A stretch of DNA of 57,381 nucleotides from a virus: positions 1-57,381 of IMG/VR virus record IMGVR_UViG_3300042896_000260; one strand, 5' to 3'. The translations under genes and the position numbers were made by a program. Shown piece after piece: positions 3,178 to 55,321 of this stretch (positions are counted from its first letter, which is position 1; every line of letters starts with the position of its first letter). Under the pieces are notes generated by a model that was not told where the DNA came from, did no database searches, and saw only the letters and a program-made list of their open reading frames with translations.

Positions 3178-3206
3178 TTGATGTATTATTCCACCCGTGG
3201 TATACT
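3178..3206 (+). promoter_or_regulatory. Early promoter with operator-like spacer (family member 1)
   Basis: TTGATG - 17 bp - TATACT, with CCACCCGTGG in the spacer directly before the -10 box. The same CACC(C/G)GTG core recurs in the spacers at 7865, 10182, 11607 and 12531, with CACGGGTG at 14406. The leader ATAGAGGAC (3222-3230) precedes the SSB-like gene at 3234. The promoter would drive the SSB-polymerase-PurZ-MazZ-DatZ run. Confidence 0.7.
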
Positions 3207-3233: not shown

Positions 3234-3503
3234 ATGAGCAAGCAATACGACAACACCAATTCCGGTATCCTCGCGCGTAACGAGCGCAAGGAGAAGGATA
3301 CCCACCCCGACTTCACGGGGTCGATCAACGTTGGGGGCACCGAATACTGGCTGTCTGCCTGGGTGAACGAGGGCCGTCCTGGCACGAAGTTCGAGGGCCG
3401 CAAGTACTTTTCGATCAAGGTCAATCCGAAGGATCAGGGTGGTGCTTCCCGGCCCGCGCCGCCCAGGGGCGACACGTACGTCGACGAAGACATCCCATTC
3501 TGA
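3234..3503 (+). CDS. Small SSB-like single-strand DNA-binding protein
   Basis: Eighty-nine residues from ATG 3234, after the leader ATAGAGGACCAA. A strand-rich core ([27 protein letters not shown]) would suit a minimal OB fold, and the protein ends in an acidic tail, YVDEDIPF, that copies the DDDIPF tip with which bacterial SSB recruits partner proteins. It overlaps the polymerase start by one base, which suggests a joint role at the fork. It is shorter than Ssb (about 178 residues). The tail is visible; the OB fold is inference. Confidence 0.65.
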
Positions 3504-5341
3504 TGACTGCCTTCCCGCGCATTGACCGCGTGCCTTACGTGGTCATCGACACGGAGACCACCGGGCTGTCGTGGTGGAAGGACCGAGTATTCGGGATTTC
3601 CATCGCTCTGCCCGGGGGCGACTCCCTGTACTGGGACATCCGCACCGACCCGCAGGTCATCCAGTGGCTCAACGATCTGGCTAAGGACGACCGCGTGGGC
3701 GTGTGGGTGGGGCACAACCTCAAATTCGACTACCACTTCCTGCGCGAGGCCGGATTCGAGATGCCGCGCGACAAGATCGACTGCACGATGGTGCGGGGCG
3801 CTCTGATCAACGAGCACGAGCCGTCCTACTCGCTCGATTTCCTGGCCCGCAAGTATGCTAAGCAGCAGAAGGACGAGGAGATCTACGAGGAGATGGCGAA
3901 GCTCTTTGGCGGTCGGCCTACCCGGTCGGCCCAGATGCCGAACATCTCGCGTGCCCCGGTGCACGTCGTCGCGAAATACGCCAAGCAGGACGTGATCGCC
4001 ACTCAGGCGCTGTACGAATGGCAGCAGGGCGAGATCGAGCGGCAGGGTCTGCACAAGGTGCACGGTTTCGAGCGTCGGCTCATGCCGGTGATCATCGACA
4101 TGGAGACCGAGGGCGTGGAGGTCGATGTGGAACTGGCCGAGAAGGCCGTTCGTGGCCTCACGGAGCGCATCGACACGATGCAGGGCGATCTCAATACCCT
4201 CGCGGGCTTCGAGGTCAACCCGAACCCCTCCGGATCGATCACGGACCTATTCAAGCCGACACTGGGCGACGATAACGAGTGGTATCTGGTTGACGGCACC
4301 AAGGCCGACAAGACCGAGGGCGGCAAGGCGTCCATCAACGCTGAGTGTCTGCGTCGCATGAAGCATCCCGCTGCCAAGATGATCTTGGACCTGCGCAAGA
4401 TGCTCAAGACGCGTGACACGTTCCTGTCCGGCCACATCCTGGGGCATCAGCATGACGGAATCATCCACTGTAATTACAATCAGACGAAGAATGATAGCGA
4501 GGCTGGCACGGGTACCGGGCGCTTATCTATTACAAATCCCGCTCTTCAGCAGATACCATCTCGAGACGTGGCAATCAAGTCCCTGGTTAGGCCCATTTTC
4601 AAGGCTGATCTGGGAGCGAAGTGGTTGGGCATGGATTGGTCCCAGTTTGAATTCCGAGTGGCTAATCATTACGGTCAGGTGCCCGCGATTCTGAAGGCGT
4701 ACCACGACAATCCGAATCTCGATTTCCACCAACTGGTGAGCGATATGACCGGGATTCCGCGAAATGCGCAGTACGCGGGCGGGCCGTCTTCCAAGGCGAT
4801 CAATCTCGGGCTCGCGTTCAACATGGGGTCGGGGCGACTGGCGCAGGAGTGCGGGCTACCATACACCGAAGAGGAGGGGCCGAATGGCAACGTCTACCTC
4901 AAGGCGGGGCCAGAGGCGATGGCGCTGTTCGAGAAGTACCACGCCGCCAATCCCGGAATGCGCAACACCGCGCAGAAGGCGAGCAGTATCGCCAAGGAGC
5001 GTGGCTACGTGCATTCGGCGATGGGACGGCACATCCGATTCCCAGGTGGGCAGTTTGTGCACAAGGCGTCGGGCTTGATCTATCAGGCCACGTCTGCTGA
5101 CTGCATGAAGCAGAAGCTCATCGAACTGGATGCGTATTTGAAGGAACATCAGTGCGGGCGGCTGCTGCTGACCGTGCACGACGAGGTGGGTATCTCCCTG
5201 GACAACGACTCGGTGCATCACGCGGAGGAAATCGCGCGGATCTACACGACGTTCGATGGCCGCGAGTGCCCGATAGCATTGCGGGTTCCGATCACGTGTG
5301 ATTGGGGCCTTGGTGATAACTGGTTAGAGGCGAAGGGTTAA
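3503..5341 (+). CDS. dpoZ: Family A DNA polymerase with 3'-5' exonuclease, DpoZ type
   Basis: A 612-residue replicative polymerase. Exonuclease motifs: Exo I with D16 and E18 (DTETTGL), Exo II VGHNLKFDYHF, Exo III YAKQDVIATQ. Polymerase motif A is WLGMDWSQFEF with metal-binding D378; motif C is VHDEVG with D560 and E561. Motif B reads SSKAINLGLAF around K431; relative to Klenow, the residue four before the lysine appears to be Gly rather than Arg, and the Phe762 and Tyr766 positions appear to be Leu and Phe. It lies directly before purZ, mazZ and datZ, as in phages whose DNA carries 2-aminoadenine. The DpoZ assignment rests mainly on this context. Confidence 0.9.
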   Translation: MTAFPRIDRVPYVVIDTETTGLSWWKDRVFGISIALPGGDSLYWDIRTDPQVIQWLNDLAKDDRVGVWVGHNLKFDYHFLREAGFEMPRDKIDCTMVRGALINEHEPSYSLDFLARKYAKQQKDEEIYEEMAKLFGGRPTRSAQMPNISRAPVHVVAKYAKQDVIATQALYEWQQGEIERQGLHKVHGFERRLMPVIIDMETEGVEVDVELAEKAVRGLTERIDTMQGDLNTLAGFEVNPNPSGSITDLFKPTLGDDNEWYLVDGTKADKTEGGKASINAECLRRMKHPAAKMILDLRKMLKTRDTFLSGHILGHQHDGIIHCNYNQTKNDSEAGTGTGRLSITNPALQQIPSRDVAIKSLVRPIFKADLGAKWLGMDWSQFEFRVANHYGQVPAILKAYHDNPNLDFHQLVSDMTGIPRNAQYAGGPSSKAINLGLAFNMGSGRLAQECGLPYTEEEGPNGNVYLKAGPEAMALFEKYHAANPGMRNTAQKASSIAKERGYVHSAMGRHIRFPGGQFVHKASGLIYQATSADCMKQKLIELDAYLKEHQCGRLLLTVHDEVGISLDNDSVHHAEEIARIYTTFDGRECPIALRVPITCDWGLGDNWLEAKG

Positions 5342-5342
5342 T

Positions 5343-6455
5343 ATGGACAAATTAGACGTGGTGGTGGATCTGCAATACGGTAGCACCGGCAAGGGATTGA
5401 TCGTCGGCTATCTGGCCGAAAATGGCCCGTACGACACCGTGGTCACAGCGTGGGCACCAAATGCGGGGCACACCTACATCGACAAGAAGGGGCGCAAATT
5501 CGTGCACACGCATCTGGCCAACGGCATCGTAGGCCCCGCAGTGCGCAAGGTCATGCTCGGCCCGGGCTCGCTGATCAACCCGCTGAGCCTGATGGCTGAG
5601 ATCTGGGAATGCGAGGACGTGGTCAAGAGCAAGGGCATCCGCATCATGATCCACCCGCACGCGGCGGTCGTGACTCAGCGGCATATCGACGAGGAAGCTG
5701 GCCCGATGACCAAGATCGGCTCGACCAAGAAGGGTGTGGGTGCTGCCATGATTCAGCGCATCCGGCGCGACCCGGACGACACGAATATCGCCGCGAACTG
5801 CGCAGCGCTGAAGGAATGGGTAGTGACCGTGGACGAGTACCGCCGGGAATTGAAGGATTCCGAGTACGTCCTGGTGGAGGGTGCCCAGGGCTACGGGCTG
5901 TCGATGTATCATGGGTTCTACCCGTACACCACCTCGCGTGACGTGTCGCTCTGGCAGATCCTCGCAGACTCCGGCATTCAGGCAGCGGACGTGCTCGACA
6001 AGTACAAGATGACCAAGGTCCGCGCCATCGGCACCTGCCGCACCTTCCCGATCCGCGTGGCGAACCGATTCGATGAGAATGGCACCCAGGTGGGCTACTC
6101 CGGCCCGTGCTACGACGACCAGTGCGAGATCACATTCGAGGACATTGGACAAAAGACCGAACTCACGACGGTGACCAAGCTGCCCCGCCGGATCTTCACG
6201 TTCAGCGGCAAGCAGATCAAGGAAGCGATCGACCACAACGCCGTGTACGAGGTGTTCCTGAACTTCGTGAATTACGTGCGCACCGAGACCGAACTCATCG
6301 ACATCGTGCAGCGCATCGAGCGCAAGGACACCCAGGTGCGTTGGATCGGCACCGGCCCCGCTCACAAGGACGTGCACGAGATTAATGGGGATCGCGCCCA
6401 GCGTATGCAAAAGATCGTATCTGTCTGGAAGGAATGTAAAAATGCTGCTGCCTGA
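5343..6455 (+). CDS. purZ: PurZ: adenylosuccinate-synthetase-like enzyme making succino-2-aminodeoxyadenylate
   Basis: A 370-residue PurA homologue starting one base after the polymerase stop. PurZ joins aspartate to dGMP to give the precursor of 2-aminodeoxyadenylate; host PurB and kinases would finish dZTP. The N-terminal loop is QYGSTGKG, where S14 replaces the catalytic Asp of PurA (GDEGKGK); this replacement is the accepted marker that separates phage PurZ from cellular PurA. APNAGHT retains the NAGHT block with the catalytic His, and YHGFYPYTTSRD matches the HGTYPYVTSS block. It is shorter than bacterial PurA (about 430 residues), as phage PurZ proteins are. It overlaps mazZ by 14 bases. 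Confidence 0.93.
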   Translation: MDKLDVVVDLQYGSTGKGLIVGYLAENGPYDTVVTAWAPNAGHTYIDKKGRKFVHTHLANGIVGPAVRKVMLGPGSLINPLSLMAEIWECEDVVKSKGIRIMIHPHAAVVTQRHIDEEAGPMTKIGSTKKGVGAAMIQRIRRDPDDTNIAANCAALKEWVVTVDEYRRELKDSEYVLVEGAQGYGLSMYHGFYPYTTSRDVSLWQILADSGIQAADVLDKYKMTKVRAIGTCRTFPIRVANRFDENGTQVGYSGPCYDDQCEITFEDIGQKTELTTVTKLPRRIFTFSGKQIKEAIDHNAVYEVFLNFVNYVRTETELIDIVQRIERKDTQVRWIGTGPAHKDVHEINGDRAQRMQKIVSVWKECKNAAA

Positions 6456-6936
6456 ATCCGAACTGCACACCGACGAGATGAACGACCTGCCGTGGTCGCT
6501 CCATCCGGAGAATAACGCCATGATACTCGATGCGAAAGGCTCGCCCGTCGCGTCGTTCGAGGTGCGCAACCCGTACCGTGGCGTGATGGGCAACTGCGAC
6601 AAGAACGCCGACCTCGCGGTGCGGGCGGTGAACGCCTACAAGAAGCGCGGTGGTGCCGACATCCGGCAACTGCAGGAGCGGATCACCAAGTGGGCCGACG
6701 CGAAGTTCCCGAATCGCACGACCGCCGACATTCTGCTCAAGCTTTACGAGGAACTTGGCGAGTACGCGCGTGACCCGAAATCCTCGCTCGAACTGGGCGA
6801 CGTGTTCATCCTGCTGCTCGACGTGGCGCACCGCAACGGCATCGACATCCACCGGGCGGTCGAGGAGAAGATGGAGATCAACGAGTCCCGCCAGTGGCGG
6901 GTGGACGAGAACACTCGAATCATGAGGCACGTATGA
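6442..6936 (+). CDS. mazZ: MazZ: MazG-type dNTP pyrophosphohydrolase
   Basis: One hundred and sixty-four residues from ATG 6442, with GGAAGGA upstream and overlapping the end of purZ. The C-terminal half carries the MazG metal site: LYEELGEYA (E103, E104, E107) and ELGDVFILLLDVAH, followed by HRAVEEKMEINESRQW. In Z-genome phages MazZ cuts dGTP to dGMP, the substrate of PurZ. Residues 1-70 (PWSLHPENNAMILDAKGSPV ... AVRAVNAY) form an extra domain like that of many small phage proteins, apparently fused to MazG here. Position next to purZ supports MazZ rather than a generic MazG. Confidence 0.88.
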   Translation: MLLPESELHTDEMNDLPWSLHPENNAMILDAKGSPVASFEVRNPYRGVMGNCDKNADLAVRAVNAYKKRGGADIRQLQERITKWADAKFPNRTTADILLKLYEELGEYARDPKSSLELGDVFILLLDVAHRNGIDIHRAVEEKMEINESRQWRVDENTRIMRHV

Positions 6937-7139
6937 AAGATACTGCATTCAGCCACTGGTACGACACCATGTTCGGCAACGTCCTGGGCGCGGAGGACGA
7001 CGAGAATCGTAACGCGGTGCGAAAGATCTGGAATGGCGTGATTGAGCACGTCGCGCAGTCGGTGGAATTCAACAATTTCGAGCCGATCAGCGCGGAGGAG
7101 ATCGCCGCCCGTATTCGTATGATGAAGGAGCGTGCATAA
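6933..7139 (+). CDS. Small unknown protein between mazZ and datZ, 68 aa
   Basis: ATG at 6933 overlaps the mazZ stop (ATGA) and its own stop overlaps datZ (TAATG), so it is translated with the Z-DNA enzymes. Predicted helical, with aromatic residues at the N terminus (FSHWYDTMF) and an acidic centre (GAEDDEN). No family is recognised. Its place within the cluster makes a role in nucleotide metabolism possible but unproven. Confidence 0.7.
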   Translation: MKDTAFSHWYDTMFGNVLGAEDDENRNAVRKIWNGVIEHVAQSVEFNNFEPISAEEIAARIRMMKERA

Positions 7140-7702
7140 TGGCACTCACGATCGCCGAGCAGATGCGGGCAAGCCACGTCACGCGGTGGCACATTGTGGC
7201 CACCTCGCGCAAGCAGTCGCTCGCTGAACACTTGTTCAACGTGTGCATTCTGTCGGTCGATTTGGCCGGTCGTGTCTACTGGCCCGGGATTCTGCACGAT
7301 TCGGAAAAGATGAAGCTCATGGATTACGCGCTCAGGCACGACCTGATCGAGGTCCGCACCGGCGACATCCCCACACCGTTCAAGAAGGTGCTCAAGGCGC
7401 TGATCGGCGCTGACGTCATGCACAGGGCCGAATCCGAGGTCGACAACGACCAATCAGGATTCTGCCGTTTGTACGCGGGCACCGACATCGAGCGCATCGT
7501 GAAGATGGCCGACATGATCGACGCGATCCAGTTCTGCACCGACACCGGTGTGGGGCTGCACGCAAAAGGCGTAATCGACGGTCTGCGCCAGGATTTCGAC
7601 GCGATGGTGAACCAGTACGAGAAAGAGTGCCCGCATTTGCGCATCCGCGAGGGGTGCCGGTCGATCTGTCGTGATCTCGGTGTCTGGGGAGGGATGCTAT
7701 GA
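7139..7702 (+). CDS. datZ: DatZ: HD-domain dATP triphosphohydrolase
   Basis: A 187-residue HD-phosphohydrolase of the YfbR/DatZ size class. The metal and substrate signatures are visible: HVTRWHIV (13-20), the helix LAEH with H31, HD at 67-68 followed by IEVRTGDIPTP, and KMADMIDAIQF with a later Asp. DatZ removes dATP (and dADP/dAMP) so that the polymerase is left with dZTP, which excludes adenine from the phage DNA. Its neighbours purZ and mazZ define the substrate; on sequence alone a general 5'-deoxynucleotidase remains possible. Confidence 0.88.
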   Translation: MALTIAEQMRASHVTRWHIVATSRKQSLAEHLFNVCILSVDLAGRVYWPGILHDSEKMKLMDYALRHDLIEVRTGDIPTPFKKVLKALIGADVMHRAESEVDNDQSGFCRLYAGTDIERIVKMADMIDAIQFCTDTGVGLHAKGVIDGLRQDFDAMVNQYEKECPHLRIREGCRSICRDLGVWGGML

Positions 7703-7923
7703 AGTGTGTACAATGCGGCGGTAGTACCAAGGTGATGACCACCTACAACAACGAGAATGGCAGCATCCGAAGGCGTCGCCGGTGCCTGGAGTGTGACTAT
7801 CGGTTCACCACCCGGGAGAAAGCCGACCCTCCCGAGGAACAACTGTATCCGTACGGGATTCGGGTTGACGGGTTACCCCACCCGTGTTATAATCGGGATT
7901 CCGAGGAACTTATAGAGGACTGA
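7699..7923 (+). CDS. NrdR-like zinc-ribbon protein without ATP-cone
   Basis: Seventy-four residues, starting within the last codons of datZ (ATGA). C3-x2-C6 and C29-x2-C32 form a zinc ribbon, and the stretch RRRRRCLECDYRFTTRE closely matches the DNA-binding zinc ribbon of NrdR, the repressor of ribonucleotide reductase genes. The ATP-cone that senses nucleotides in NrdR (about 100 residues) is missing, so this is a free-standing ribbon. It may be a DNA-binding regulator; whether it acts on host nrd genes or on the phage's own palindromic operators is unknown. The gene holds the next promoter near its 3' end. Confidence 0.75.
   Translation: MKCVQCGGSTKVMTTYNNENGSIRRRRRCLECDYRFTTREKADPPEEQLYPYGIRVDGLPHPCYNRDSEELIED
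7865..7893 (+). promoter_or_regulatory. Early promoter with operator-like spacer (family member 2)
   Basis: TTGACG - 17 bp - TATAAT, with CCACCCGTGT in the spacer abutting the -10 box. It lies inside the end of the zinc-ribbon gene, and the leader ATAGAGGAC (7912-7920) follows just before the TTG start of the deacetylase-like gene at 7925. Confidence 0.75.
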
Positions 7924-7924
7924 C

Positions 7925-8755
7925 TTGACCCCGATTTTCTACACCCCCGCCCAGACCGCTGACCACGACTTCATCTCGGTCAGCAAGATCCCCGAGTTCG
8001 TGCGACAGGCCGACCGCAAGACCAACAGCGATATCGAGCCGCTGACCCCGACCGATCTGGCCCGGGCGCACGACCCCGATTTCGTGGACGACGTGCTTAC
8101 GTGCCGAGTCGCGAACGGATTCGGAAACAGGAATCCGGCGCTCACCGACACAACCCGCTACACGACCGGGAACATCGTCCGGGCGACCGAGTGGGTGATT
8201 CAGGAGGGCATGCTCGTGGCGTGCTCGGCCACACAGGGATTCCACCACGCACACTACGCTAGTTGCTACGGGTACTGCACGTTCAACGGCCTGATCCTGG
8301 CCGCGCGGCGTGCTGTCGATCTCCTGGGCTTGAGGGTGCTGATCATCGACGGCGACGGCCATGAGGGTGACGGCACCGACGACATCATCGACAAGACGGG
8401 TCTCTACCACGACGTAATCAACATCGACCGTCGACAACTGGCGCATGGTGTTCGCCCGACTTGGAACGCCCGGATGTGGATGCATTACTTCACCCATTTG
8501 ATCAATCTGCACGAGCCGGGTATAATACTATACCAAGCGGGGGCCGATGCCTGGGAAGAAGATCCGTACGGCGCGGGGTACCTGAGCAAAGAGGGGATGC
8601 GTGATCGCGATAGCGGGTTGTTCCAAGCCGCTGCAAATGCTGTGATCCCCGTGGTGTGGAACCTAGCCGGTGGGTACACCGATCCGATGCAGGGCACGAT
8701 CGACATCCATCTGCAAACGCTCCAAGTGAGCGACGAGGTGTACTATGGCCGGTAA
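7925..8755 (+). CDS. Histone-deacetylase-fold amidohydrolase (acetylpolyamine amidohydrolase-like)
   Basis: A 276-residue zinc hydrolase of the arginase/deacetylase fold, starting at TTG 7925 five bases after the ATAGAGGAC leader. All catalytic positions can be read: the His pair in GFHHAH (H107, H108), metal ligands in DGDGHEGDGT (D142, D144, H146), the third ligand in QAGADAWEEDPYG (D208) and the transition-state Tyr in NLAGGYTD (Y251). Bacterial relatives deacetylate acetylated polyamines, acetoin-pathway substrates or proteins. The substrate here is unknown; freeing polyamines for DNA packing or removing acetyl marks from host proteins are guesses. It is shorter than typical members (about 310-370 residues). 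Such a gene in a phage is uncommon. Confidence 0.85.
   Translation: MTPIFYTPAQTADHDFISVSKIPEFVRQADRKTNSDIEPLTPTDLARAHDPDFVDDVLTCRVANGFGNRNPALTDTTRYTTGNIVRATEWVIQEGMLVACSATQGFHHAHYASCYGYCTFNGLILAARRAVDLLGLRVLIIDGDGHEGDGTDDIIDKTGLYHDVINIDRRQLAHGVRPTWNARMWMHYFTHLINLHEPGIILYQAGADAWEEDPYGAGYLSKEGMRDRDSGLFQAAANAVIPVVWNLAGGYTDPMQGTIDIHLQTLQVSDEVYYGR
8498..8526 (+). promoter_or_regulatory. Possible intragenic promoter
   Basis: TTGATC - 17 bp - TATAAT lies within the deacetylase-like gene, about 220 bases before the next start at 8745. The -10 box overlaps an imperfect palindrome (GGTATAATACTATACC). The CACC(C/G)GTG core is absent, so it is not a member of the early promoter family and could be chance. 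Confidence 0.4.
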
Positions 8756-9929
8756 TGCCCCGATGTCCTTCGTGGACCTGATGCGCGGCGTGAGCAAGGT
8801 GCACAAGGGTCTCGCCGAGAGCGTGCCCGGTGCCAAACGCATTCCGCAGGAGATGTCCTCCAAGGTCGAGAAGATGATGCCGACGGAGGTGCTCGAGGAG
8901 TACAACCGGCGAAAGATGTTCGGCCAGACCTCCACCGGCGAGCCCTACCGTGGCGTGATCCGCGAGTCGATCGGGGAGGCACCGGGTACCGGCGGGCGTC
9001 TGCCGAAGAGAGGGCATCTTCTCGTGGTGCCGGAGTCCAAGGCTAGCCGCTACGCGCAGGGGCTCGAGCCCATGGCGGGCGTCAGCGACATGCGATTCAA
9101 GCGCTACCAGAACATGGGAGCCGAGCCGCCGCTGACCGCCTATACCTTGGGCGATGTCGACCAGATGAAGATGGCCGGTCAGCCGAAGGCCGACATCTTT
9201 GACATTAACGCACTCGACATCGGACGTGGCATGGGGCCGATGCAGTACCGTGCGATGTACGACATGATCAACGCGGGCGGCGACGTGAATCAGGCGTCGT
9301 TCCTGACCGACATCAACGTGCTGCGGCGTCTGGGCAACGTGGCACCGCTGTATCTGGACGACCCCGCCCGCGTGGCCCATCGCGGTATCATGCCGATCAG
9401 CGAGTCGCCAAAGCCCGCCGGGTCTTACAGTCAGCAATTGTTCTCACAGCCGATCTCCTCGAAAGGTGGGGAGCAGTACGCTCTGCAGAAACTGTTCGAG
9501 GACTACGACGATTTGGTCGATGAGGCGATGACCATGCAACCCCGCGACCTGCGTGGCATGAGCCCCGACGTCATGGCCGGGTTGCTTTACTCACGCGAGG
9601 CGCAGTTGAACAAGGCGTACGGTCCGGAGTCGCAAGGCGGTATGATGGCGCTGCCTCAGCACCTGGGGAACAAGGACGTATTGTTCCGTCTGACGGAGCC
9701 CTACCGTTCTGCGGCTGCACGAGTTAACGAGACTGGCGTGCGTGCCGGCATCGGACCCCACACACTCGGGCGTGCTCGCACCACCGAAGAGGCGATCTAC
9801 CGGATGTTGCGTCAGGGTTCGGACCCGGACGACATCGCGAACGACCTGCTGCGCGAGATGCGCGGAGAGACCGGCGGCATGAAGGGACGCTATGCAAAAG
9901 GGGGACTCGCAAGTGCACTCCAAGGTTGA
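8745..9929 (+). CDS. Unknown protein resembling parts of large phage polyvalent proteins, 394 aa
   Basis: ATG at 8745 overlaps the end of the deacetylase-like gene, so the two are probably co-translated. The segment GRGMGPMQYRAMYDMINAGG ... FLTDINVLRRLGN (about residues 164-200) recalls a domain found in large phage polyvalent proteins, and the C terminus ends in RYAKGGLASALQG, a glycine-rich motif also seen in the virion protein at 18741 (AYAKGGKV). A virion-carried protein or an injected effector is therefore possible although the gene lies in the early arc. No catalytic residues are evident. Confidence 0.65.
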   Translation: MAGNAPMSFVDLMRGVSKVHKGLAESVPGAKRIPQEMSSKVEKMMPTEVLEEYNRRKMFGQTSTGEPYRGVIRESIGEAPGTGGRLPKRGHLLVVPESKASRYAQGLEPMAGVSDMRFKRYQNMGAEPPLTAYTLGDVDQMKMAGQPKADIFDINALDIGRGMGPMQYRAMYDMINAGGDVNQASFLTDINVLRRLGNVAPLYLDDPARVAHRGIMPISESPKPAGSYSQQLFSQPISSKGGEQYALQKLFEDYDDLVDEAMTMQPRDLRGMSPDVMAGLLYSREAQLNKAYGPESQGGMMALPQHLGNKDVLFRLTEPYRSAAARVNETGVRAGIGPHTLGRARTTEEAIYRMLRQGSDPDDIANDLLREMRGETGGMKGRYAKGGLASALQG

Positions 9930-10185
9930 CATCACCACAATCGTGGACGAGCGGGGCTCGCAGTACGGCGATTTCGCCGAGCAGGGGCAGATCGCTCAGG
10001 CGCTGAAGGACTACATGCGCGAGCACATCGGGTGGGACCGGCTGAGTGCCCATCAGCGCGAGGCGCTCGACATGATCATGCACAAGGTCTCCCGCATTCT
10101 GAACGGGAACCCGAACCACAAAGACTCCTGGGTCGACATCGAGGGTTACGCCCATATCGTGGCGATCAGGATACCGGGGGATTGA
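9892..10185 (+). CDS. DUF6378-like protein, 97 aa
   Basis: ATG 9892 overlaps the previous gene by 38 bases; a GTG at 9910 is an alternative start. The pattern DERGSQYGDFAEQGQIAQALK ... QREALDMIMHKVSRILNGNP-NHKDSWVDIEGYAHIV matches a widespread small phage family (DUF6378) with a conserved Glu/Asp/His set on helices. MazG-like nucleotide hydrolysis has been proposed for similar all-alpha folds, but its function is not established. It is followed by a promoter of the shared family. Confidence 0.75.
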   Translation: MQKGDSQVHSKVDITTIVDERGSQYGDFAEQGQIAQALKDYMREHIGWDRLSAHQREALDMIMHKVSRILNGNPNHKDSWVDIEGYAHIVAIRIPGD

Positions 10186-10211
10186 CAAGGGTATAGCACC
10201 GGTGTTATACT
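10182..10211 (+). promoter_or_regulatory. Early promoter with near-perfect operator palindrome (family member 3)
   Basis: TTGACA - 18 bp - TATACT. The spacer and -10 box contain GTATAGCACCGGTGTTATAC, a 20-bp palindrome with one mismatched pair. RNA polymerase and a dimeric regulator bound here would compete. The leader ATAGAGGACA (10241-10250) follows. Confidence 0.8.
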
Positions 10212-10256: not shown

Positions 10257-10541
10257 ATGGCACAAGTTGCAAGCATCATCACCGAGTCCATGGTCGACGA
10301 GTTGGCGCAAGTGCGCGACCAGTTGAAGGCACTGGAGGCCCGCGAGAAGTTCCTCAAGGAGCAATTCCGCAACGAGGGCGCGGGCACCTATCGTGGCCGT
10401 CACTACCAGATCGAGATCGTGTTCACGACGCAGAAGAACACGGACATGGACGCGGTGCGGGCAGAATTGGGGGCCGCATGGATCGCGTCACACTACAAGA
10501 CCATCGAGAAGATGAACATTCGCCAGATGGAACTCGTATGA
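10257..10541 (+). CDS. Unknown early protein, 94 aa, N-terminal coiled coil
   Basis: Starts at ATG 10257, after ATAGAGGACACGCCAA. Residues 10-40 (MVDELAQVRDQLKALEAREKFLKE) form a strong coiled coil; the second half has strands (TYRGRHYQIEIVFTTQKN) and a helix. It is reminiscent of small phage proteins of the DUF2312/gp5.5 size class, but no function is assigned. First gene of the operon behind the palindromic promoter. Confidence 0.72.
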   Translation: MAQVASIITESMVDELAQVRDQLKALEAREKFLKEQFRNEGAGTYRGRHYQIEIVFTTQKNTDMDAVRAELGAAWIASHYKTIEKMNIRQMELV

Positions 10542-12530: not shown

Positions 12531-12560
12531 TTGACAATACTATAGCACCGGTGTTATACT
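12531..12560 (+). promoter_or_regulatory. Early promoter with operator palindrome (family member 5)
   Basis: TTGACA - 18 bp - TATACT, with TATAGCACCGGTGTTATACT and the trailing TCAGGTACTGGATC identical to the promoter at 10182; the two regions look like a duplicated cassette. The 59-base stretch to the next start ends in the leader ATAGAGGAC (12604-12612). Confidence 0.82.
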
Positions 12561-43540: not shown

Positions 43541-46500
43541 ATGCGATTCATCGACGAATCAGATTACTATCAGTTCGATGAACAGGATTACCCGTCAGTT
43601 CCGTCGTCGCCTCTGCAATCTGCGGCTGCAAATACAGCGCCCGTAGTGGCGACGTCACCTCTGAGGACGGCATCGACCGAGAATGCTACCACTCTGACGT
43701 CTTTGTATCAAGATGTCCTGGGTCGGGCTCCTGACGAGGGCGGCTTTGGCTTCTGGCTCAACGCCATGAATGACCAAGGTTACACGCCTGAGATGGTTCG
43801 TCAGCAGTTTATGCAATCGCCTGAATATCAGGCTCGTCAAGCAACTACCACCGGGGCTCTTGCTCAGGCGGTATCCCCAACGCCCACCACGGCACCGACT
43901 CCCATTTCCGCAGCGCCCTCTGTAGGAGTTACCCCGAGCATTTCCCCCGCAGAGCGTGTTACCCCATCGACTCCTGCGGCAGAGGTCATGCCGCCGAGCC
44001 GACCTGTAGACCAGATACCTGATCGCGAAATCGTAGAACCAGAACCCGTTCGAGTCGCACCTAATCTTCTCCGCACTCCTGGTGGGACCTACATCAACGA
44101 TTCGGGCTATCCGGTTGACACGGCAGAAGCTCAGAGAGTTATCTCCGGTGGTGCTGCCCCGGCTCCTGCTCCTGCTCCTGCACCCGCCCCGTCGCCTTCC
44201 TCCGCTCTCTCCCAAGCGGCATCCGCTTCTCCTCAGGCGCTCTTCACGACTTTGTTTGGTGCCGACCCAAGCATTGCTGATCAATTGAGGGCGAGTTATA
44301 ACCAAGCGTTCAACCAGGGCGAAGGCTCCACCTTCTACGACGCCGGGATGCAGGTCGGCGAATACACCGTTCGGTCCATGCCGATCGGGTACGATTTCGC
44401 GGGCGAGCGCCAGGGTGGCGGATTCCAGGCCACCAAGACTGCGACGAACGACCGCAATCTGCCGCTTGAGACGACCTACACCTACGACGACAACGGAGCG
44501 ATCACGGGTGCCGAGGTTCGTTATTTCACGGGCAGTGATAGTGGCGTCGCCATCCGTTTCGACGGCCAAGGTAACAAGATAGACGAGAGGGGCTTCGACT
44601 ATTCGGAGTCCTGGAAGGGCGCTGTCGCTCCTTTGGTGTCGATGGCAGCGATGGCCTTCGCGGGGCCAGTCGCACAGACCCTCGGTGCCACCCTCGGAGG
44701 GGGTACCGCCACGCTCGCGTCGGAGATCGCGGCAAATGCTATCGTTCGCGGTGGCCTTGGTGCTGCCCAGGCGGGCCTGACCGGTGGCGACATATTGAAG
44801 GGTGCCTTGACCGGTGCAGCGACTGGAGCACTCGGCGCGGGTGGTGCGAGCCTCGCCAACACCGCCGCCGCTGAGACGCTGAATCTTACCGGAAGCCAGA
44901 TCGCCGCTGATGCGGTGCGTGGTGCCGTGCAAAGCGGGCTGAATGCCATCCCCGGTGCCATCGTGTCCGGCGATCTCGGCGGGCTTGGACAGGCTCTTCT
45001 CACCGGTGCGGTGACCTCCGGCGTTGGTAGTGCTGCGGGGCAAGCGCTTTCCGGCACCGGCATCACCCAACAGCAAGTCACTTCCGGATTGGCACTGGCA
45101 CAGCAATTGCAGTCTGGAAAGCCCAACATCTCCGCCATCGCTAACGCCGCAGCAGGACTCGTAAATAACCCGAATGCCACCGTCGCAGCGAAGGCTATCA
45201 GCTTGATGGATACCATCCAGAGGGCGGGTGGTAACCCGATGGCCCTCATGGGTATCATGGAGGCGGCGAATCAGTTATCGAACGCGGTGAATGCTGCGGA
45301 GCAAGCCGGTATCAAACGTCTACCCGGGACTGTCACCGGTCCTACGGTCTCCGTGACTGGTGGTGATCTGCAATCGGTTGGTTCTACGGACCTTGGGCTA
45401 TCCACGTTCATCAACTCGATCAACACGCTCGGCGCGTCTACAGACGAGGCGTTGGCAGCGGCTAACGCGGCACTGGGCCGAGCCACCACAAATCTCGCCA
45501 CGCAAGACGCGATCGAGAATGCATCCACCTTTGACAGTGCCTTCTCGCAAGCCCGCGCTGCATACGGCCCCGGTAAGACCTTCACGTGGCAAGGCAAAGA
45601 GTACAGCACTGACACCCGCACTGAGAACCCAACGCTCGCTGCGGCATCCGACGCTGCACGACAAACAGCAGTAGGGGCCGGTGCCGGACGCGGGACTAGC
45701 ACTGGCATGACCGCCACCGAGGCGACGAATCTGGCCGGTGTCCCGCTCCGCACGACGTCGACCACTGGGACGACTAGTGGTGACGATACCGCCATCGATT
45801 ATGGCTCTGCTGCCACCTCTATGCAGGGCACTCCACTAAGCGACGAATTCAAGCCGGTGGTGGCGGCCCCGCAGTGGATGAAGGATCACTTGCAGACCGG
45901 CGGTAACGTCGTACAGCAGGGCATCTCGAACATTCTGCAGTTGGTGGGCGAGCAGGGCTCCAGTCTGGTCACTGGCCTGGGTGGTCGAAATACTTTCGTC
46001 GATCGTGCTTTCACAGCGCTTGAGCACGCCGGCAAGTACATGGAGTTGCCGCAGGTCACCGAGGCCACACAGAACGTCCTGAACCGGGTCCAGAACACGG
46101 AAGGTCTCTTTAACAAGGGATTCGAATTTGTTAAGGCGGTTATCGATAACCCGTTGTCGCTTAACATGGTCCTGCGCGAAGTGGGGCAAGAAATCCTGCC
46201 AACTGCGGCAGCGGCGCGTGCCACCAAATTACTGGGTCTCGCTGCCGGGGTGACCACTGATGTTGGACTCAACTCGATCGAGTCGATCGGAGCCACATCC
46301 CGCGACAAATACCAGGAATATCTGCAAAAGGGGATGACACCGGAACAGGCAGACCGCGAGGCCGCTATCGATGGCTACATAGCGGGCGGTATCACCGCTG
46401 CCACTGCCGGTGTCGTGGACGCGGCTATCGCCAAACGGTTCGGAAATGCCATCGAATCATTGGTGGGTAGGAAGGTTGGAGCGGGGGCGACAGAGGCTCC

Positions 46501-48613
46501 CGTGGAGGGTTTCGAAGAATTCGTCATTGCCCTGGCCACGGGTGAAGACCTGAATTCCGCTCTTACGAAGTCCATCGTCGGTGCAGGTGTGAGCGGTAAG
46601 ACCGCCAGTACAATCCAGACCTCAGCAGATGTCAACACTGCACTGGCGAATTCTTTCGCTAATCAGGGACTGATATCGATAGACGGTTCATACCGTCCCG
46701 ATTCGGTGGTCAACACCAACATCTCTATTGGTACCGATGCTTCGGGCAATACGCTAACCCTCGGCGATCTGGTTAATGTCTCTCTTGCGAACGACAACTC
46801 ATACCTGTCCACCACCGGCCAGATCGACGTCAATCAATTAATCTCGGATTACAGCCGTGAAGTGTTGGGCGGCGGGTTGATCGATACGTCTGGCATGACT
46901 GCAGACACCGTGCTTGGCACGAGTGCGTCGGGTACCCCGATCACGGCGGCGAGCCTCGGGTTGGTGGGTGGTGGTACGGCCCCGGGAGTGAAGGTAAACA
47001 CCAACACCGGGACGGTGACTGATTCTACTGTGAATAACACCGGCGGCACGACCGTGACTGCCACGAATCAGAACACCGGAGCAACGAGCACCACCAACAC
47101 CGACGCGTCGAACAACACGACCACGACTAGTTCGTCTAACCCTAACAACGGCACAGATACCGTCACCCAGACGAATAACAACACCGGCACTTCTACGAGC
47201 ACCACTACCGACAACAACGCCGGTACCAGCACTGTCGTAACGAATGATCCGAACGCCGGGACGAAGGCTGAGACCGTCACAAATCAGAGCAACAATACTA
47301 CGACCGAGAGTGTGACGAACACGAATACTGGGGTGACCAATTCCACCAGTACGAACGCCAATACCGGTGCCACTACCCAGACCACGACCAATACCAACAC
47401 CGGGACGTCAACCTCGACTTCGACCGACCCGAGCACCGGTGCTACCACGAATTCTCAGACTAACAATAACACCGGTACGACGACTTCGACCGAGACGAAC
47501 ACGAATACTGGTACAACCACTTCGACCGAGACGAACACCAACACCGGAGTCAGCACCAGTACCGAGACCAACACGAATACCGGTACGACGACAAGCACGG
47601 AAACGAATACCAACACCGGCACCACGACATCGACTGAGACTAACAATAACACGGGCGTCACGACCACCACGCAGGTGGACCCCAACACCAATGTTACTAC
47701 CACTACGCAAGTAGATCCGAATACAAACACGGTCACTACCACTCAGGTCGATCCGAATACGAATATTCAGACCACGACGGTCACCGACACGAACACCAAT
47801 ACTAGCACGACGGTCAACGTCGACGTGAACACTGGTGAACCGGTGGAAGGACCCACAAAGACCCTGAGTCCTATTCCCCCGGTCAAAGATGTGCCGCCTA
47901 TGGACGTCACCCCGGAAGGGCCGGTCACGCCTCCGTCGGTAGACCCGATCACGACTCAAGTAACCAAGGTCACAGACAAGGCGATCAAGGCCGGTGCCAC
48001 ACCTACCCAGGCGACCCAGATCGCGATCGCCGAGGTCGCCGCCCGTACTGGGCGTCCCGAATCCGACATTAAAGAAACATGGCTCGGTGGAAGATTTATG
48101 AACAAGACTAGTCCATACGCTGCTCTGGCCGCTCTCTTCGGCTTGACCCCTGACGCACAAGAGGCCGAAGCCTTGTCCGCTCTGCAGCGGGCGTCCGGCG
48201 TAACCTCAGAGGAGCCCGGGTACTTCTCGTACGGCTCCGAGGCGTCGCCCGCCGACGTGATCGCCCCGTACCGGGCCGGTGGAACTGTACAGGGCCATGC
48301 CTCGGGTGGTAAAATTCTTTCGTCACCACTGATGGCAGCGGCAGGCGGCGATGTACCCCACAAAGGTTCGCATTATGTGCAGGGTGCCGGGGGCGGTCAA
48401 GACGATCTTATCCCCGCGAAACTGGCTGACGGCGAGTACGTCTTTGACGCGGAGATCGTGGCCGCGCTCGGCGACGGCTCTAACAAGGAGGGTGCCAAGA
48501 AGCTCGATGCAATGCGCGAATCAATCCGCAAGCACAAGCGTTCCGGCTCCTTGAAGTCGATCCCCCCACAAGCCAAATCGCCCCTGCAATACTTCAAAGA
48601 GGCTAACAAATGA
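43541..48613 (+). CDS. Giant virion protein, 1690 aa, with DUF4214 domain and Thr/Asn repeat stalk
   Basis: The largest gene. Residues about 50-98 (LTSLYQDVLGRAPDEGGFGF and VRQQFMQSPEYQ) match DUF4214, a surface or binding domain. Residues 180-230 are Pro/Ala-rich. Residues 360-1000 are Ala/Gly-rich with membrane-prone helices (GAVAPLVSMAAMAFAGPVAQ), as in ejection and internal proteins. Residues about 1150-1445 are the Thr/Asn repeat. The end (HASGGKILSSPLMAAAGGDV and KLADGEYVFDAEIVAALGDG) has a DGEYV-type module of phage tail and internal proteins. It may be a channel or ejection protein; the repeat could be an extensible linker. Confidence 0.75.
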   Translation: MRFIDESDYYQFDEQDYPSVPSSPLQSAAANTAPVVATSPLRTASTENATTLTSLYQDVLGRAPDEGGFGFWLNAMNDQGYTPEMVRQQFMQSPEYQARQATTTGALAQAVSPTPTTAPTPISAAPSVGVTPSISPAERVTPSTPAAEVMPPSRPVDQIPDREIVEPEPVRVAPNLLRTPGGTYINDSGYPVDTAEAQRVISGGAAPAPAPAPAPAPSPSSALSQAASASPQALFTTLFGADPSIADQLRASYNQAFNQGEGSTFYDAGMQVGEYTVRSMPIGYDFAGERQGGGFQATKTATNDRNLPLETTYTYDDNGAITGAEVRYFTGSDSGVAIRFDGQGNKIDERGFDYSESWKGAVAPLVSMAAMAFAGPVAQTLGATLGGGTATLASEIAANAIVRGGLGAAQAGLTGGDILKGALTGAATGALGAGGASLANTAAAETLNLTGSQIAADAVRGAVQSGLNAIPGAIVSGDLGGLGQALLTGAVTSGVGSAAGQALSGTGITQQQVTSGLALAQQLQSGKPNISAIANAAAGLVNNPNATVAAKAISLMDTIQRAGGNPMALMGIMEAANQLSNAVNAAEQAGIKRLPGTVTGPTVSVTGGDLQSVGSTDLGLSTFINSINTLGASTDEALAAANAALGRATTNLATQDAIENASTFDSAFSQARAAYGPGKTFTWQGKEYSTDTRTENPTLAAASDAARQTAVGAGAGRGTSTGMTATEATNLAGVPLRTTSTTGTTSGDDTAIDYGSAATSMQGTPLSDEFKPVVAAPQWMKDHLQTGGNVVQQGISNILQLVGEQGSSLVTGLGGRNTFVDRAFTALEHAGKYMELPQVTEATQNVLNRVQNTEGLFNKGFEFVKAVIDNPLSLNMVLREVGQEILPTAAAARATKLLGLAAGVTTDVGLNSIESIGATSRDKYQEYLQKGMTPEQADREAAIDGYIAGGITAATAGVVDAAIAKRFGNAIESLVGRKVGAGATEAPVEGFEEFVIALATGEDLNSALTKSIVGAGVSGKTASTIQTSADVNTALANSFANQGLISIDGSYRPDSVVNTNISIGTDASGNTLTLGDLVNVSLANDNSYLSTTGQIDVNQLISDYSREVLGGGLIDTSGMTADTVLGTSASGTPITAASLGLVGGGTAPGVKVNTNTGTVTDSTVNNTGGTTVTATNQNTGATSTTNTDASNNTTTTSSSNPNNGTDTVTQTNNNTGTSTSTTTDNNAGTSTVVTNDPNAGTKAETVTNQSNNTTTESVTNTNTGVTNSTSTNANTGATTQTTTNTNTGTSTSTSTDPSTGATTNSQTNNNTGTTTSTETNTNTGTTTSTETNTNTGVSTSTETNTNTGTTTSTETNTNTGTTTSTETNNNTGVTTTTQVDPNTNVTTTTQVDPNTNTVTTTQVDPNTNIQTTTVTDTNTNTSTTVNVDVNTGEPVEGPTKTLSPIPPVKDVPPMDVTPEGPVTPPSVDPITTQVTKVTDKAIKAGATPTQATQIAIAEVAARTGRPESDIKETWLGGRFMNKTSPYAALAALFGLTPDAQEAEALSALQRASGVTSEEPGYFSYGSEASPADVIAPYRAGGTVQGHASGGKILSSPLMAAAGGDVPHKGSHYVQGAGGGQDDLIPAKLADGEYVFDAEIVAALGDGSNKEGAKKLDAMRESIRKHKRSGSLKSIPPQAKSPLQYFKEANK
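46990..47840 (+). repeat. Low-complexity Thr/Asn coding repeat, 36-bp units
   Basis: The repeat codes for about 280 residues of Thr, Asn, Ser and Gly. From about 47461 to 47660 the unit is TNTNTGTTTSTE (12 residues, 36 bp) repeated five or six times; then TQVDPNTNVTTT units follow to about 47800. The codons differ among units, so the repeat is kept for its protein sequence and is not a recent slippage product. Confidence 0.85.
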
Positions 48614-53767: not shown

Positions 53768-55321
53768 ATGACGAGTTTAGTACAGGACTTTGCGGGCCTG
53801 TTCGCCGGTAATCTGAGGTCTTACGGCCAGTGGGACCCCGCGACAGGGAACATGACGACAGTGAAAGCCGAGATACCTCTCTCGGCCTACGAGGATCATA
53901 TAGAGGGCAGGATGGGCCTGGGGGTGGTGCCGATTACCGACGGCGGCACCTGCGTGTTCGGGGCGATCGACATCGACAAGCACGACACGCCTGAGGACAT
54001 CGACTTCAAGTCGCTTGCGGACAAGATCAAAGAGTACCGACTGCCCCTGGTGATGTGCCGCACCAAGCGCGGCGGGGCGCACCTGTACGTGTTCGGATCG
54101 GAGTTCCTCCCGGCCAAGCAGGTGCAGCGCATCCTGGCTTCGTGGCGCGACATGCTCAAGATCCCGTACAAGACCGAGATCTTCCCGAAGCAGGACTCGC
54201 TCGTGACAGCGGGAGGCGAGAAGGCGCTCGGTAACTGGATCAATCTGTGCTATTTTGACGTGGCCGACACCAAGCGGTACGCGTTCGACGAGAACGGCGA
54301 GCGGATGACGTTCGAGTTATTCGTGCAGTACGCCCAGTCCAAGCGGATCAGCGCGGCAGAATTGGCCGAGTTCACGCAGCGTGAGCATCTGGAGGCACCG
54401 CCCTGCGTGCAAAAGATGATCCACACTGGGGTGGAGTCTGGTGCCCGTAACGACGCCATGTACAACGTGGTGATCTACCTCAAGCGTGCGCGGCCCGAGA
54501 CGTTCTTCGACGACGCGATGGTGTTGAACAAGACGATGTTCGACAAGCCGTTACCACCGTCCGAGGCCAAGAAGGTGATCCGGTCGGCGTCCAGACGGGA
54601 TTACCTGTACAAATGCGCGGAGGAGCCCTGCAAGTCGCTGTGCGACCGTAAGGTGTGTGTCACGCGCGAGTTCGGCATCTCGATGGACGAGAAAAAGGAA
54701 CTGGACGCGCACGACTCGCTGCCGCAGTTCACCGACCTCATCGAGTACCAGTCCGACCCGCCACGGTGGGGGCTACACGTCAACGGCACACTGATCAGCA
54801 ATATCCCGACGGTGGTGCTGCGCGACCCGGCGGCGATGGGTACACTCATCTTCGAGAAGCTCAAGATCAATATTCCGAAGATCAGCCAGGACTCATGGCG
54901 CAAGCGAATCCTCGACCCTCTAGTGCCGAATCTGCGCGTGATCGAGGTGCCAAAGGAGGCGAGCGCGTCGGGCGTGATTCAGGCCAAGTTCGCCGAATTC
55001 GTGCAAAAGGCGAACCTCGACTCAGACGGCACCAACACTGAGGAGCGGAAGGCGCTGCTGCGGAATATCCCAGTGGTGCAAGTGATGAACGGCGTGCGCT
55101 GCGTGGTGTTCAGGGGCACCGCATTCTCCGAGTTCCTCAAGCGTAACAAGGCCGAGGTGATGACGGGCATGGACCTGTGGATCGCGCTGCGGCGTGACTG
55201 CGGCGCGGATCACGACAAGATGCGGATACCGGGCGGCAAGGTCATAAACGTTTGGTACGCCCCGATAACCGAGGATTATGAGGTGAGTGCTGATGAGCCC
55301 GAATTCAAGTCAGAATTCTAA
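53768..55321 (+). CDS. Archaeo-eukaryotic-type primase (TOTE/PrimPol-like)
   Basis: A 517-residue protein. The AEP catalytic core is seen as VFGAIDIDKHD (D68, D70), followed by CRTKRGGAHLYVF (H105, with the K-R-G-G-x-H pattern) and a third acidic region (KTEIFPKQ); NDAMYNVVIYLKRA near residue 230 resembles the PriCT-type linker, and CAEEPCKSLCDRKVC (about 283-297) is a zinc-binding Cys cluster. It would make the primers for replication and works beside the helicase gene that overlaps its end. Start ATG 53768 after AATAGAGGGATC. Confidence 0.85.
   Translation: MTSLVQDFAGLFAGNLRSYGQWDPATGNMTTVKAEIPLSAYEDHIEGRMGLGVVPITDGGTCVFGAIDIDKHDTPEDIDFKSLADKIKEYRLPLVMCRTKRGGAHLYVFGSEFLPAKQVQRILASWRDMLKIPYKTEIFPKQDSLVTAGGEKALGNWINLCYFDVADTKRYAFDENGERMTFELFVQYAQSKRISAAELAEFTQREHLEAPPCVQKMIHTGVESGARNDAMYNVVIYLKRARPETFFDDAMVLNKTMFDKPLPPSEAKKVIRSASRRDYLYKCAEEPCKSLCDRKVCVTREFGISMDEKKELDAHDSLPQFTDLIEYQSDPPRWGLHVNGTLISNIPTVVLRDPAAMGTLIFEKLKINIPKISQDSWRKRILDPLVPNLRVIEVPKEASASGVIQAKFAEFVQKANLDSDGTNTEERKALLRNIPVVQVMNGVRCVVFRGTAFSEFLKRNKAEVMTGMDLWIALRRDCGADHDKMRIPGGKVINVWYAPITEDYEVSADEPEFKSEF

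What the first reader, a model, noticed from the sequence alone, without database searches (positions are those of the whole stretch)
3503..7702. Complete 2-aminoadenine (Z) DNA pathway: polymerase, PurZ, MazZ and DatZ in one operon
Sequence shows a family A polymerase, a PurA-like enzyme whose catalytic Asp is replaced by Ser (S14 in QYGSTGKG), a MazG-type hydrolase with EELGE and an HD-phosphohydrolase, with one-base gaps or overlaps between most of them. Known Z-genome phages (S-2L, phiVC8, SH-Ab 15497 types) carry PurZ with a DatZ, MazZ and DpoZ in the same grouping. I infer that adenine in this phage's DNA is replaced by 2-aminoadenine, which would protect it from many restriction enzymes and raise DNA stability.
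Basis: partly seen in the sequence, partly recalled or inferred. Interest (0 to 1): 0.85.

Follow-up and report, generated by a model that had tools for sequence, protein, structure and literature searches.

The report
Z-DNA gene set in uncultivated phage
This uncultured bacterial virus carries the set of phage genes known to swap the DNA letter A for 2-aminoadenine (Z), and it belongs to a large family of uncultured relatives that keep this set next to a conserved, separately switched-on gene pair, one of them a predicted deacylase.

Summary
3503-7702 encodes DpoZ (NCBIfam DpoZ_1, 800 bits, cut-off 500), PurZ (NCBIfam PurZ, 340 bits, cut-off 300), a MazZ-1-type hydrolase and DatZ, with an unmentioned 81-aa ORF between the last two. 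Nearly all published specificity and catalytic residues I could map are conserved, here and in 52-64 relatives. PurZ lies in the phage PurZ clade, outside PurA. The polymerase has the DpoZ Phe and Gly substitutions and insertion 2, all absent from three PolAs of phages with no PurZ seen. The Z-genome inference is well supported, but DNA chemistry was not measured and a restriction-site test was null.

New: the window is a circularly complete genome of about 57.2 kb in a wholly uncultivated clade (44 loci with DpoZ at least 70% identical), combining SH-Ab/PMBT28-like replication genes with another virion type. Conserved near-consensus sigma-70 promoters split the locus: one precedes SSB-DpoZ-PurZ-MazZ-ORF-DatZ-NrdR-like, another an HDAC-like deacylase with a partner gene. 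That cassette's link to Z-DNA is open. A bacterial chromosomal PurZ-like gene was noticed in passing.

The parts
3178..3206 (+). extended sigma-70 promoter-like site upstream of the SSB gene (TTGATG, 17, TATACT, TG)
   Evidence: 9 of 12 in the window; its counterpart scores 11 or more of 12 in 36 of 39 group-A loci, 0 shuffles
3234..3503 (+). single-strand DNA-binding protein
   Evidence: phrog_7364 E 1.1e-15
3503..5341 (+). DpoZ, family A DNA polymerase with 3'-5' exonuclease
   Evidence: NF038380 799.6 bits; residues
5343..6455 (+). PurZ, 2-aminoadenylosuccinate synthetase
   Evidence: NF038379 339.8 bits; residues; tree
6442..6936 (+). MazZ (DUF550/MazZ-1 domain with an N-terminal extension; longest ORF starts at 6385)
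   Evidence: PF04447 E 9.7e-11 at residues 97-175; residues
6894..7139 (+). small ORF of unknown function between mazZ and datZ (internal ATG at 6933)
   Evidence: no family; found in 41 of 44 group-A loci
7139..7702 (+). DatZ, HD-domain dATP triphosphohydrolase
   Evidence: phrog_7076 E 2.5e-30, PF12917; residues
7699..7923 (+). NrdR-type zinc ribbon without ATP-cone (74 aa)
   Evidence: PF22811 E 5e-11; four Cys invariant in 22 sequences; 43 of 44 group-A loci
7865..7893 (+). extended sigma-70 promoter-like site of the deacylase cassette (TTGACG, 17, TATAAT, TG)
   Evidence: 11 of 12 in the window; at least 10 of 12 in 47 of 47 relatives; 11 or more in 40 of 42 group-A loci
7925..8755 (+). 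HDAC-like Zn-dependent deacylase; neighbour of the Z cluster, link to Z-DNA unproven
   Evidence: PF00850 E 1.6e-29; invariant active site; model pLDDT 91.5, VcHdaH Z 33.8
8745..9929 (+). partner of the deacylase, possibly GNAT-like acyltransferase (weak)
   Evidence: present or absent together with the deacylase; eight best structural rows are GNATs but Z at most 5.8

Best explanation
The region is the Z-genome module of an uncultivated tailed phage. MazZ hydrolyses dGTP to dGMP; PurZ condenses dGMP with aspartate to dSMP; host enzymes turn this into dZTP; DatZ removes dATP; DpoZ copies the genome with a preference for dZTP over dATP, helped by its proofreading exonuclease. Adenine in the phage DNA is thereby largely or wholly replaced by 2-aminoadenine. 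Shown here: gene content, order, conserved residues, phylogenetic placement, conservation across the clade, promoter layout. Inferred: all enzyme activities, the use of host enzymes and the DNA composition.
For: Curated family matches; PurZ, MazZ and DatZ residues; DpoZ residues and insertions; PurZ tree; MazZ 44 of 44 and DatZ 43 of 44 in group A, the one miss being a contig end; one promoter-bounded unit.
Against: No chemical evidence. Palindrome-avoidance test null. The phosphate-binding Lys of DatZ is Glu or Thr in 11 of 61 relatives, though Lys in the window. The phage is uncultured and its host unknown, so the needed host enzymes cannot be checked.
Confidence: 0.88

Rival explanations
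1. Mixed DNA: the enzymes are active but only part of the adenine is replaced, because dATP removal or polymerase selection is incomplete in the natural host.
For: Transplanting the S-2L triad into E. coli gave only partial replacement (12.1% in plasmids, PMC8342488).
Against: That experiment lacked a DpoZ and used a non-native host; this phage has a full DpoZ with intact exonuclease.
Confidence: 0.07
2. Nucleotide scavenging: the enzymes reshape the host purine pool (dGMP and dATP turnover) but the genome keeps ordinary adenine.
For: Some phages carry a canonical Asp-type PurA without a Z cluster in the held DNA, for example L155.
Against: PurZ has Ser and the other PurZ-specific residues, and a matching DpoZ is next to it.
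Confidence: 0.04
3. For the flanking cassette: the deacylase and its partner are host-takeover or counter-defence genes unrelated to Z-DNA, placed beside the Z cluster because early genes lie there.
For: Own near-consensus promoter; found in 0 of 12 group-B Z loci and none of seven isolated Z-phage regions; L053 and L011 lack both genes yet keep the Z cluster; nine more distant homologues lie in loci without DpoZ, MazZ or DatZ matches.
Against: All 43 close homologues with at least 3.5 kb upstream have PurZ there; but they are one clade, so descent alone can explain this.
Confidence: 0.8

Closest known systems
Acinetobacter phage SH-Ab 15497 and Salmonella phage PMBT28 (siphovirus Z-phages)
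   Same: helicase, DpoZ, SSB, PurZ, MazZ, DatZ in one run; PurZ 43-48% and DpoZ 47-49% identity; related primase, 42-43%
   Different: SSB lies before DpoZ here and after it there; their mazZ genes are longer (SH-Ab fuses DUF5664 per PMC12884076) whereas no DUF5664 was matched here; no NrdR-like, HDAC-like or partner gene there
Vibrio phage phiVC8 and cyanophage S-2L
   Same: PurZ, a MazZ and DatZ adjacent; residues
   Different: phiVC8 has MazZ-2 and a DpoZ with Ser in motif C where the window has Glu; S-2L uses a PrimPol and no DpoZ (PMC8065100 passages)
Caudoviricetes sp. ctpbd312 (MW202545), uncultivated
   Same: virion module: portal 62%, terminase 49-57%, GroES-like 59%; similar genome size
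   Different: no match to the window Z-cluster proteins in its 57 kb
Bacterial classical deacylases, cluster 5 (VcHdaH; Leptospira HDAC11), for the neighbouring deacylase
   Same: fold, Z 33.8 and 32.4; active-site residues; Gly-Phe-His-His as in human HDAC11 in place of the RPP motif (PMC11532494 passage)
   Different: 21-26% identity; phage-encoded; substrate unknown

Membership tests
PurZ | Ser in place of the catalytic Asp of PurA | tested here: met
   S14; Ser in 60 of 60 relatives with that column, Asp in E. coli PurA
PurZ | PurZ-type nucleotide pockets (S-2L T273, N305, F306, G335; V241) | tested here: met
   T275, N307, F308, G338, V239; position 308 of S-2L is Asn, as in phiVC8
PurZ | groups with phage PurZ, apart from PurA | tested here: met
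   45-row set at 100/100 in a 53-row tree, midpoint-rooted, with some long branches
PurZ | makes dSMP from dGMP and Asp | not testable with these tools
   needs an assay
MazZ-1 | metal ligands E35, E38, E50, D53, guanine contacts I56 and D60, R83 (S-2L numbering) | tested here: met
   E123, E126, E136, D139, I142, D146, R169; each conserved in 62 of 62 relatives
DatZ | HD metal site, R19, W20, I22, P79, K81, K116 (S-2L numbering) | tested here: met
   R16, W17, I19, H31, H67, D68, P80, K82, K122, D125; K116 position varies in 11 of 61 relatives
DpoZ (phiVC8-like clade) | L455, F459, G548 (phiVC8 numbering), exonuclease residues, HD dyad | tested here: met
   L435, F439, G524, D16, E18, D76, Y159, D163, H559, D560
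DpoZ (phiVC8-like clade) | three insertions around the active site | tested here: inconclusive
   insertions 1 and 2 clearly present, insertion 3 present but shorter in the alignment; no structure made
DpoZ (phiVC8-like clade) | preference for dZTP over dATP | not testable with these tools
   needs an assay
PurZ0-type Z-phage (Wayne, Ghobes) | dutZ gene | tested here: inconclusive
   no dUTPase match among 40 ORFs scanned with PHROGs, covering 39 of the 69 called ORFs plus one more
Zn-dependent classical deacylase (HDAC family), neighbouring gene | His-His dyad, Asp/His/Asp zinc ligands, Tyr | tested here: met
   H107, H108, D144, H146, D208, Y251 invariant in 25 sequences; assignment of roles by recalled HDAC8 pattern
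NrdR | zinc ribbon plus ATP-cone | tested here: not met
   zinc ribbon met (PF22811); the 74-aa protein matches only positions 1-45 of the 147-position NrdR model
GNAT acyltransferase, partner gene | GNAT fold | tested here: inconclusive
   eight best VIA rows are GNATs, but Z 4.4-5.8; no Foldseek match below E 0.7; pLDDT 77.6

The most novel reading that the evidence does not exclude
In this uncultivated clade the Z-genome programme has two further arms: a NrdR-type zinc ribbon without the nucleotide-sensing ATP-cone, which occupies host NrdR sites and keeps ribonucleotide reductase under phage control while DatZ strips dATP; and a separately transcribed acylation pair, a cluster-5-like deacylase with a GNAT-like partner, that retunes host or phage proteins for replication with Z.
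Probability: 0.1. Interest if true: 0.75.

Novelty: new member of a known kind. Interest (0 to 1): 0.45.

Why it matters
It places the Z-genome pathway in a large uncultivated lineage whose virion genes resemble those of a phage without Z genes, so the Z replication module appears to be exchangeable between virion types. The clade offers many natural variants of PurZ, MazZ, DatZ and DpoZ for enzymology, and it points to conserved neighbours (a NrdR-like ribbon and a deacylase cassette) whose roles can be tested.

Tried and rejected
Restriction-site signature: I expected relaxed avoidance of A-containing palindromes in Z-phages. After two encouraging comparisons, the enlarged test of 20 Z and 12 comparison sequences showed nothing (6-mers with A/T p 0.40, GC-only 6-mers p 0.68). 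Rejected as evidence. The comparison set was picked by hand and differs in G+C.

NrdR box in the window: none with up to 3 mismatches to a recalled consensus, so self-regulation through that box is not supported.

GNAT assignment of the partner gene: suggested by strand order and a recalled motif, then tested; weak only. Pfam over 26 members gave a few weak, mixed hits, PDB sequences nothing useful. Its C-terminal tail motif is not shared by other window ORFs.

Deacylase link to Z: nine more distant homologues lack DpoZ, MazZ and DatZ matches; L155 has a canonical Asp PurA about 7 kb away, L154 a partial PurA-type match whose N-terminus is not held. 99 of the 179 loci found were not returned and not examined.

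Host: no tRNA, no near DNA match of bases 1-25000 among phage records; none assigned.

Counts: the 'viral' denominator of 65 wrongly included an E. coli control; one search recounts with 64. Several loci are near-identical, so counts are not independent.

Papers: PMC12884076 parts 1, 3, 4, 5 of 7 and passages; PMC8342488 outline and Results; PMC8599892 outline and two sections; PMC8065100, PMC8515928 and PMC11532494 passages only. Searches of an open-access library listed no paper on a deacylase in Z-phages; most subscription journals are not held.
Full report
CHECK. The window is the whole of one virus record. Its first and last 149 bases agree at 147 positions, and a relative at 97-99% DNA identity (L049) runs across that junction, so this is a complete genome on a circular map, about 57,232 bases. 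DpoZ and PurZ pass curated NCBIfam cut-offs; MazZ matches PF04447 and DatZ the PHROG for dATP triphosphohydrolase. NCBIfam calls this polymerase DpoZ_1, whereas PMC12884076 uses DpoZ-2 for the polymerase of PurZ phages, so the numbering is not uniform.

RESIDUES. I aligned the window proteins with those of SH-Ab 15497, phiVC8, S-2L, PSA28, PMBT28, Bm1 and BUCT555 (phiVC8 left out for MazZ, S-2L for DpoZ) and with IMG/VR relatives. PurZ: S14 stands where E. coli PurA has Asp, and T275, N307, F308, N310 and G338 occupy positions that differ in PurA; V239 contacts the sugar (positions from PMC8342488; counts). MazZ keeps E123, E126, E136, D139 and the guanine contacts I142 and D146 in 62 of 62 relatives. 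DatZ keeps the HD metal site in 61 of 61; Ile at the 2-amino gate in 58 of 61 (Met in 3); the position of S-2L K116 is Glu or Thr in 11 of 61 but Lys in the window. DpoZ keeps L435, F439, G524 and the HD dyad in 52 of 52, and the exonuclease residues in 49 to 52 of 52. A control: the PolAs of HTVC027P, 023Pt_psg01 and DSL-LC04 have Tyr instead of Phe, Asn instead of Gly and lack insertion 2, though they share the Leu. None of these three was among the 60 of 214 records listed, and their annotations show no PurA or PurZ in the 50 kb read of each.

PHYLOGENY. A tree of 53 proteins puts the window PurZ in a 45-row set (100/100) with all seven isolated-phage PurZ rows, apart from E. coli PurA, a phage PurA and four archaeal Asp-type proteins. 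PurZ0 of Wayne falls outside, on a long branch next to another long branch, so its place is unsure. Within PurZ the window sits in a 17-row clade (100/97) made only of uncultivated viruses.

CLADE. Of 64 IMG/VR loci with a PurZ relative, 44 have a DpoZ at least 70% identical in the held DNA (group A), 12 a more distant one (37-53%, group B) and 8 none in the held stretch (group C). In group A: MazZ 44, DatZ 43, NrdR-like 43, HDAC-like 42, partner gene 42 of 44. One miss in the last four (L035) is a contig that ends; L053 lacks the deacylase, also elsewhere in its 56-kb record. In group B the NrdR-like, HDAC-like and partner genes are found in 0 of 12. Of fifteen records searched whole, fourteen carry the deacylase.

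MOSAIC. Virion proteins (portal 62%, terminase, GroES-like and others) match ctpbd312, an uncultivated phage with no match to the window's Z-cluster proteins. The primase, DpoZ and PurZ match known Z-phages best among listed records. So a Z replication module is combined with a different virion type; the direction of exchange was not tested.

TRANSCRIPTION. Scoring the 150 bases upstream of twelve genes across group A, three stand out: SSB (36 of 39 loci at 11 or 12 of 12), HDAC-like (40 of 42) and the gene at 10257 (39 of 40); the other nine genes have none, and no shuffle reaches 11. Over 47 loci with the deacylase gene the best score is at least 10 in 47, all with the TG of an extended -10. 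Thus SSB-DpoZ-PurZ-MazZ-ORF-DatZ-NrdR-like looks like one unit, and the deacylase with its partner and the gene at 9892 another, both probably read by host RNA polymerase. In the window itself the SSB site is weaker (9 of 12).

DEACYLASE CASSETTE. The model (pLDDT 91.5) is closest to VcHdaH (Z 33.8, 269 residues, 2.3 A) and Leptospira HDAC11 (Z 32.4, 266 residues, 2.5 A); the first acetylpolyamine amidohydrolase row has Z 27.2. It has G105-F106-H107-H108 where VcHdaH has GYHH and human HDAC11 GFHH; in cluster 5 this replacement of the RPP motif goes with a pocket for long acyl chains (PMC11532494 passage). Long-chain deacylation is therefore my inference; the substrate is unknown. Only 5 of 50,697 phage records hold a relative. 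Of 80 IMG/VR loci returned (179 found), 71 are close (at least 45%): 66 have DatZ in the held DNA, the other five have 361 bases or less upstream; all 43 with at least 3.5 kb upstream have PurZ. This is strict linkage inside one clade, which descent alone can produce.

NRDR-LIKE RIBBON. The 74-aa protein has the NrdR zinc ribbon and its arginine run but no ATP-cone; 17 positions, including four Cys, are invariant over 22 sequences. A decoy or repressor at host NrdR sites is an idea only.

VERDICT. The Z-genome reading is very likely right, and the finding is a new, well-populated lineage of a known kind. The unexplained part is the conserved company it keeps.

Noticed in passing
L081:7968-9011 and L080:7977-9014 (MAG contigs, genomes G018 and G017): PurZ-like genes (Ser at the catalytic position and the Thr/Asn/Phe/Asn/Gly PurZ residues) sit in bacterial chromosomes between cmk and an RdgB/HAM1-like non-canonical purine NTP pyrophosphatase, followed by a rpsA-like gene. 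They are the only PF00709 members found in those two assemblies, purB matches are sub-threshold fumarase-like proteins, no DatZ match, ordinary PolA with Tyr and Asn. Both of 2 genomes held of that family have it, 2 of 6 of the order by a strong match. The NCBIfam PurZ score of L081 is 206.5, under its cut-off of 300. Assemblies may be incomplete. A cellular PurZ with a pyrophosphatase next to it would be of high interest.
   Followed up: partly
L089 (Candidatus Gottesmanbacteria MAG contig, 11.8 kb): PurZ, DatZ and a distant DpoZ-like polymerase (29% identity) on a contig binned with a candidate-phyla bacterium: perhaps a Z-phage of that group.
   Followed up: no
L083 (Gammaproteobacteria MAG) and L078 (Verrucomicrobia MAG): Z-phage-like contigs with PurZ, DatZ and DpoZ inside bacterial bins, possible host hints for other Z-phage groups.
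   Followed up: no
L082 (Acidobacteriaceae MAG contig): PurZ0-like protein with GSEGKG motif, next to Wayne PurZ0 in the tree but on a long branch.
   Followed up: no
L043:11436-13478, L044:11436-14084, L045:11436-13334: The partner gene is an open frame of 1,899-2,649 bases here instead of about 1,200, suggesting an in-frame insertion or fusion.
   Followed up: no
window 53768-55321: Primase with an AEP domain closest to the TOTE conflict-system model PF22548 plus PriCT_1, shared with SH-Ab-type Z-phages.
   Followed up: partly
window 43541-48613: 1690-aa ORF in the virion region with no PHROG match.
   Followed up: no
window 10182-10211 and 12531-12560: Further extended sigma-70-like sites with 11 of 12 matches; the first is conserved upstream of gene 10257 in 39 of 40 group-A loci.
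   Followed up: partly
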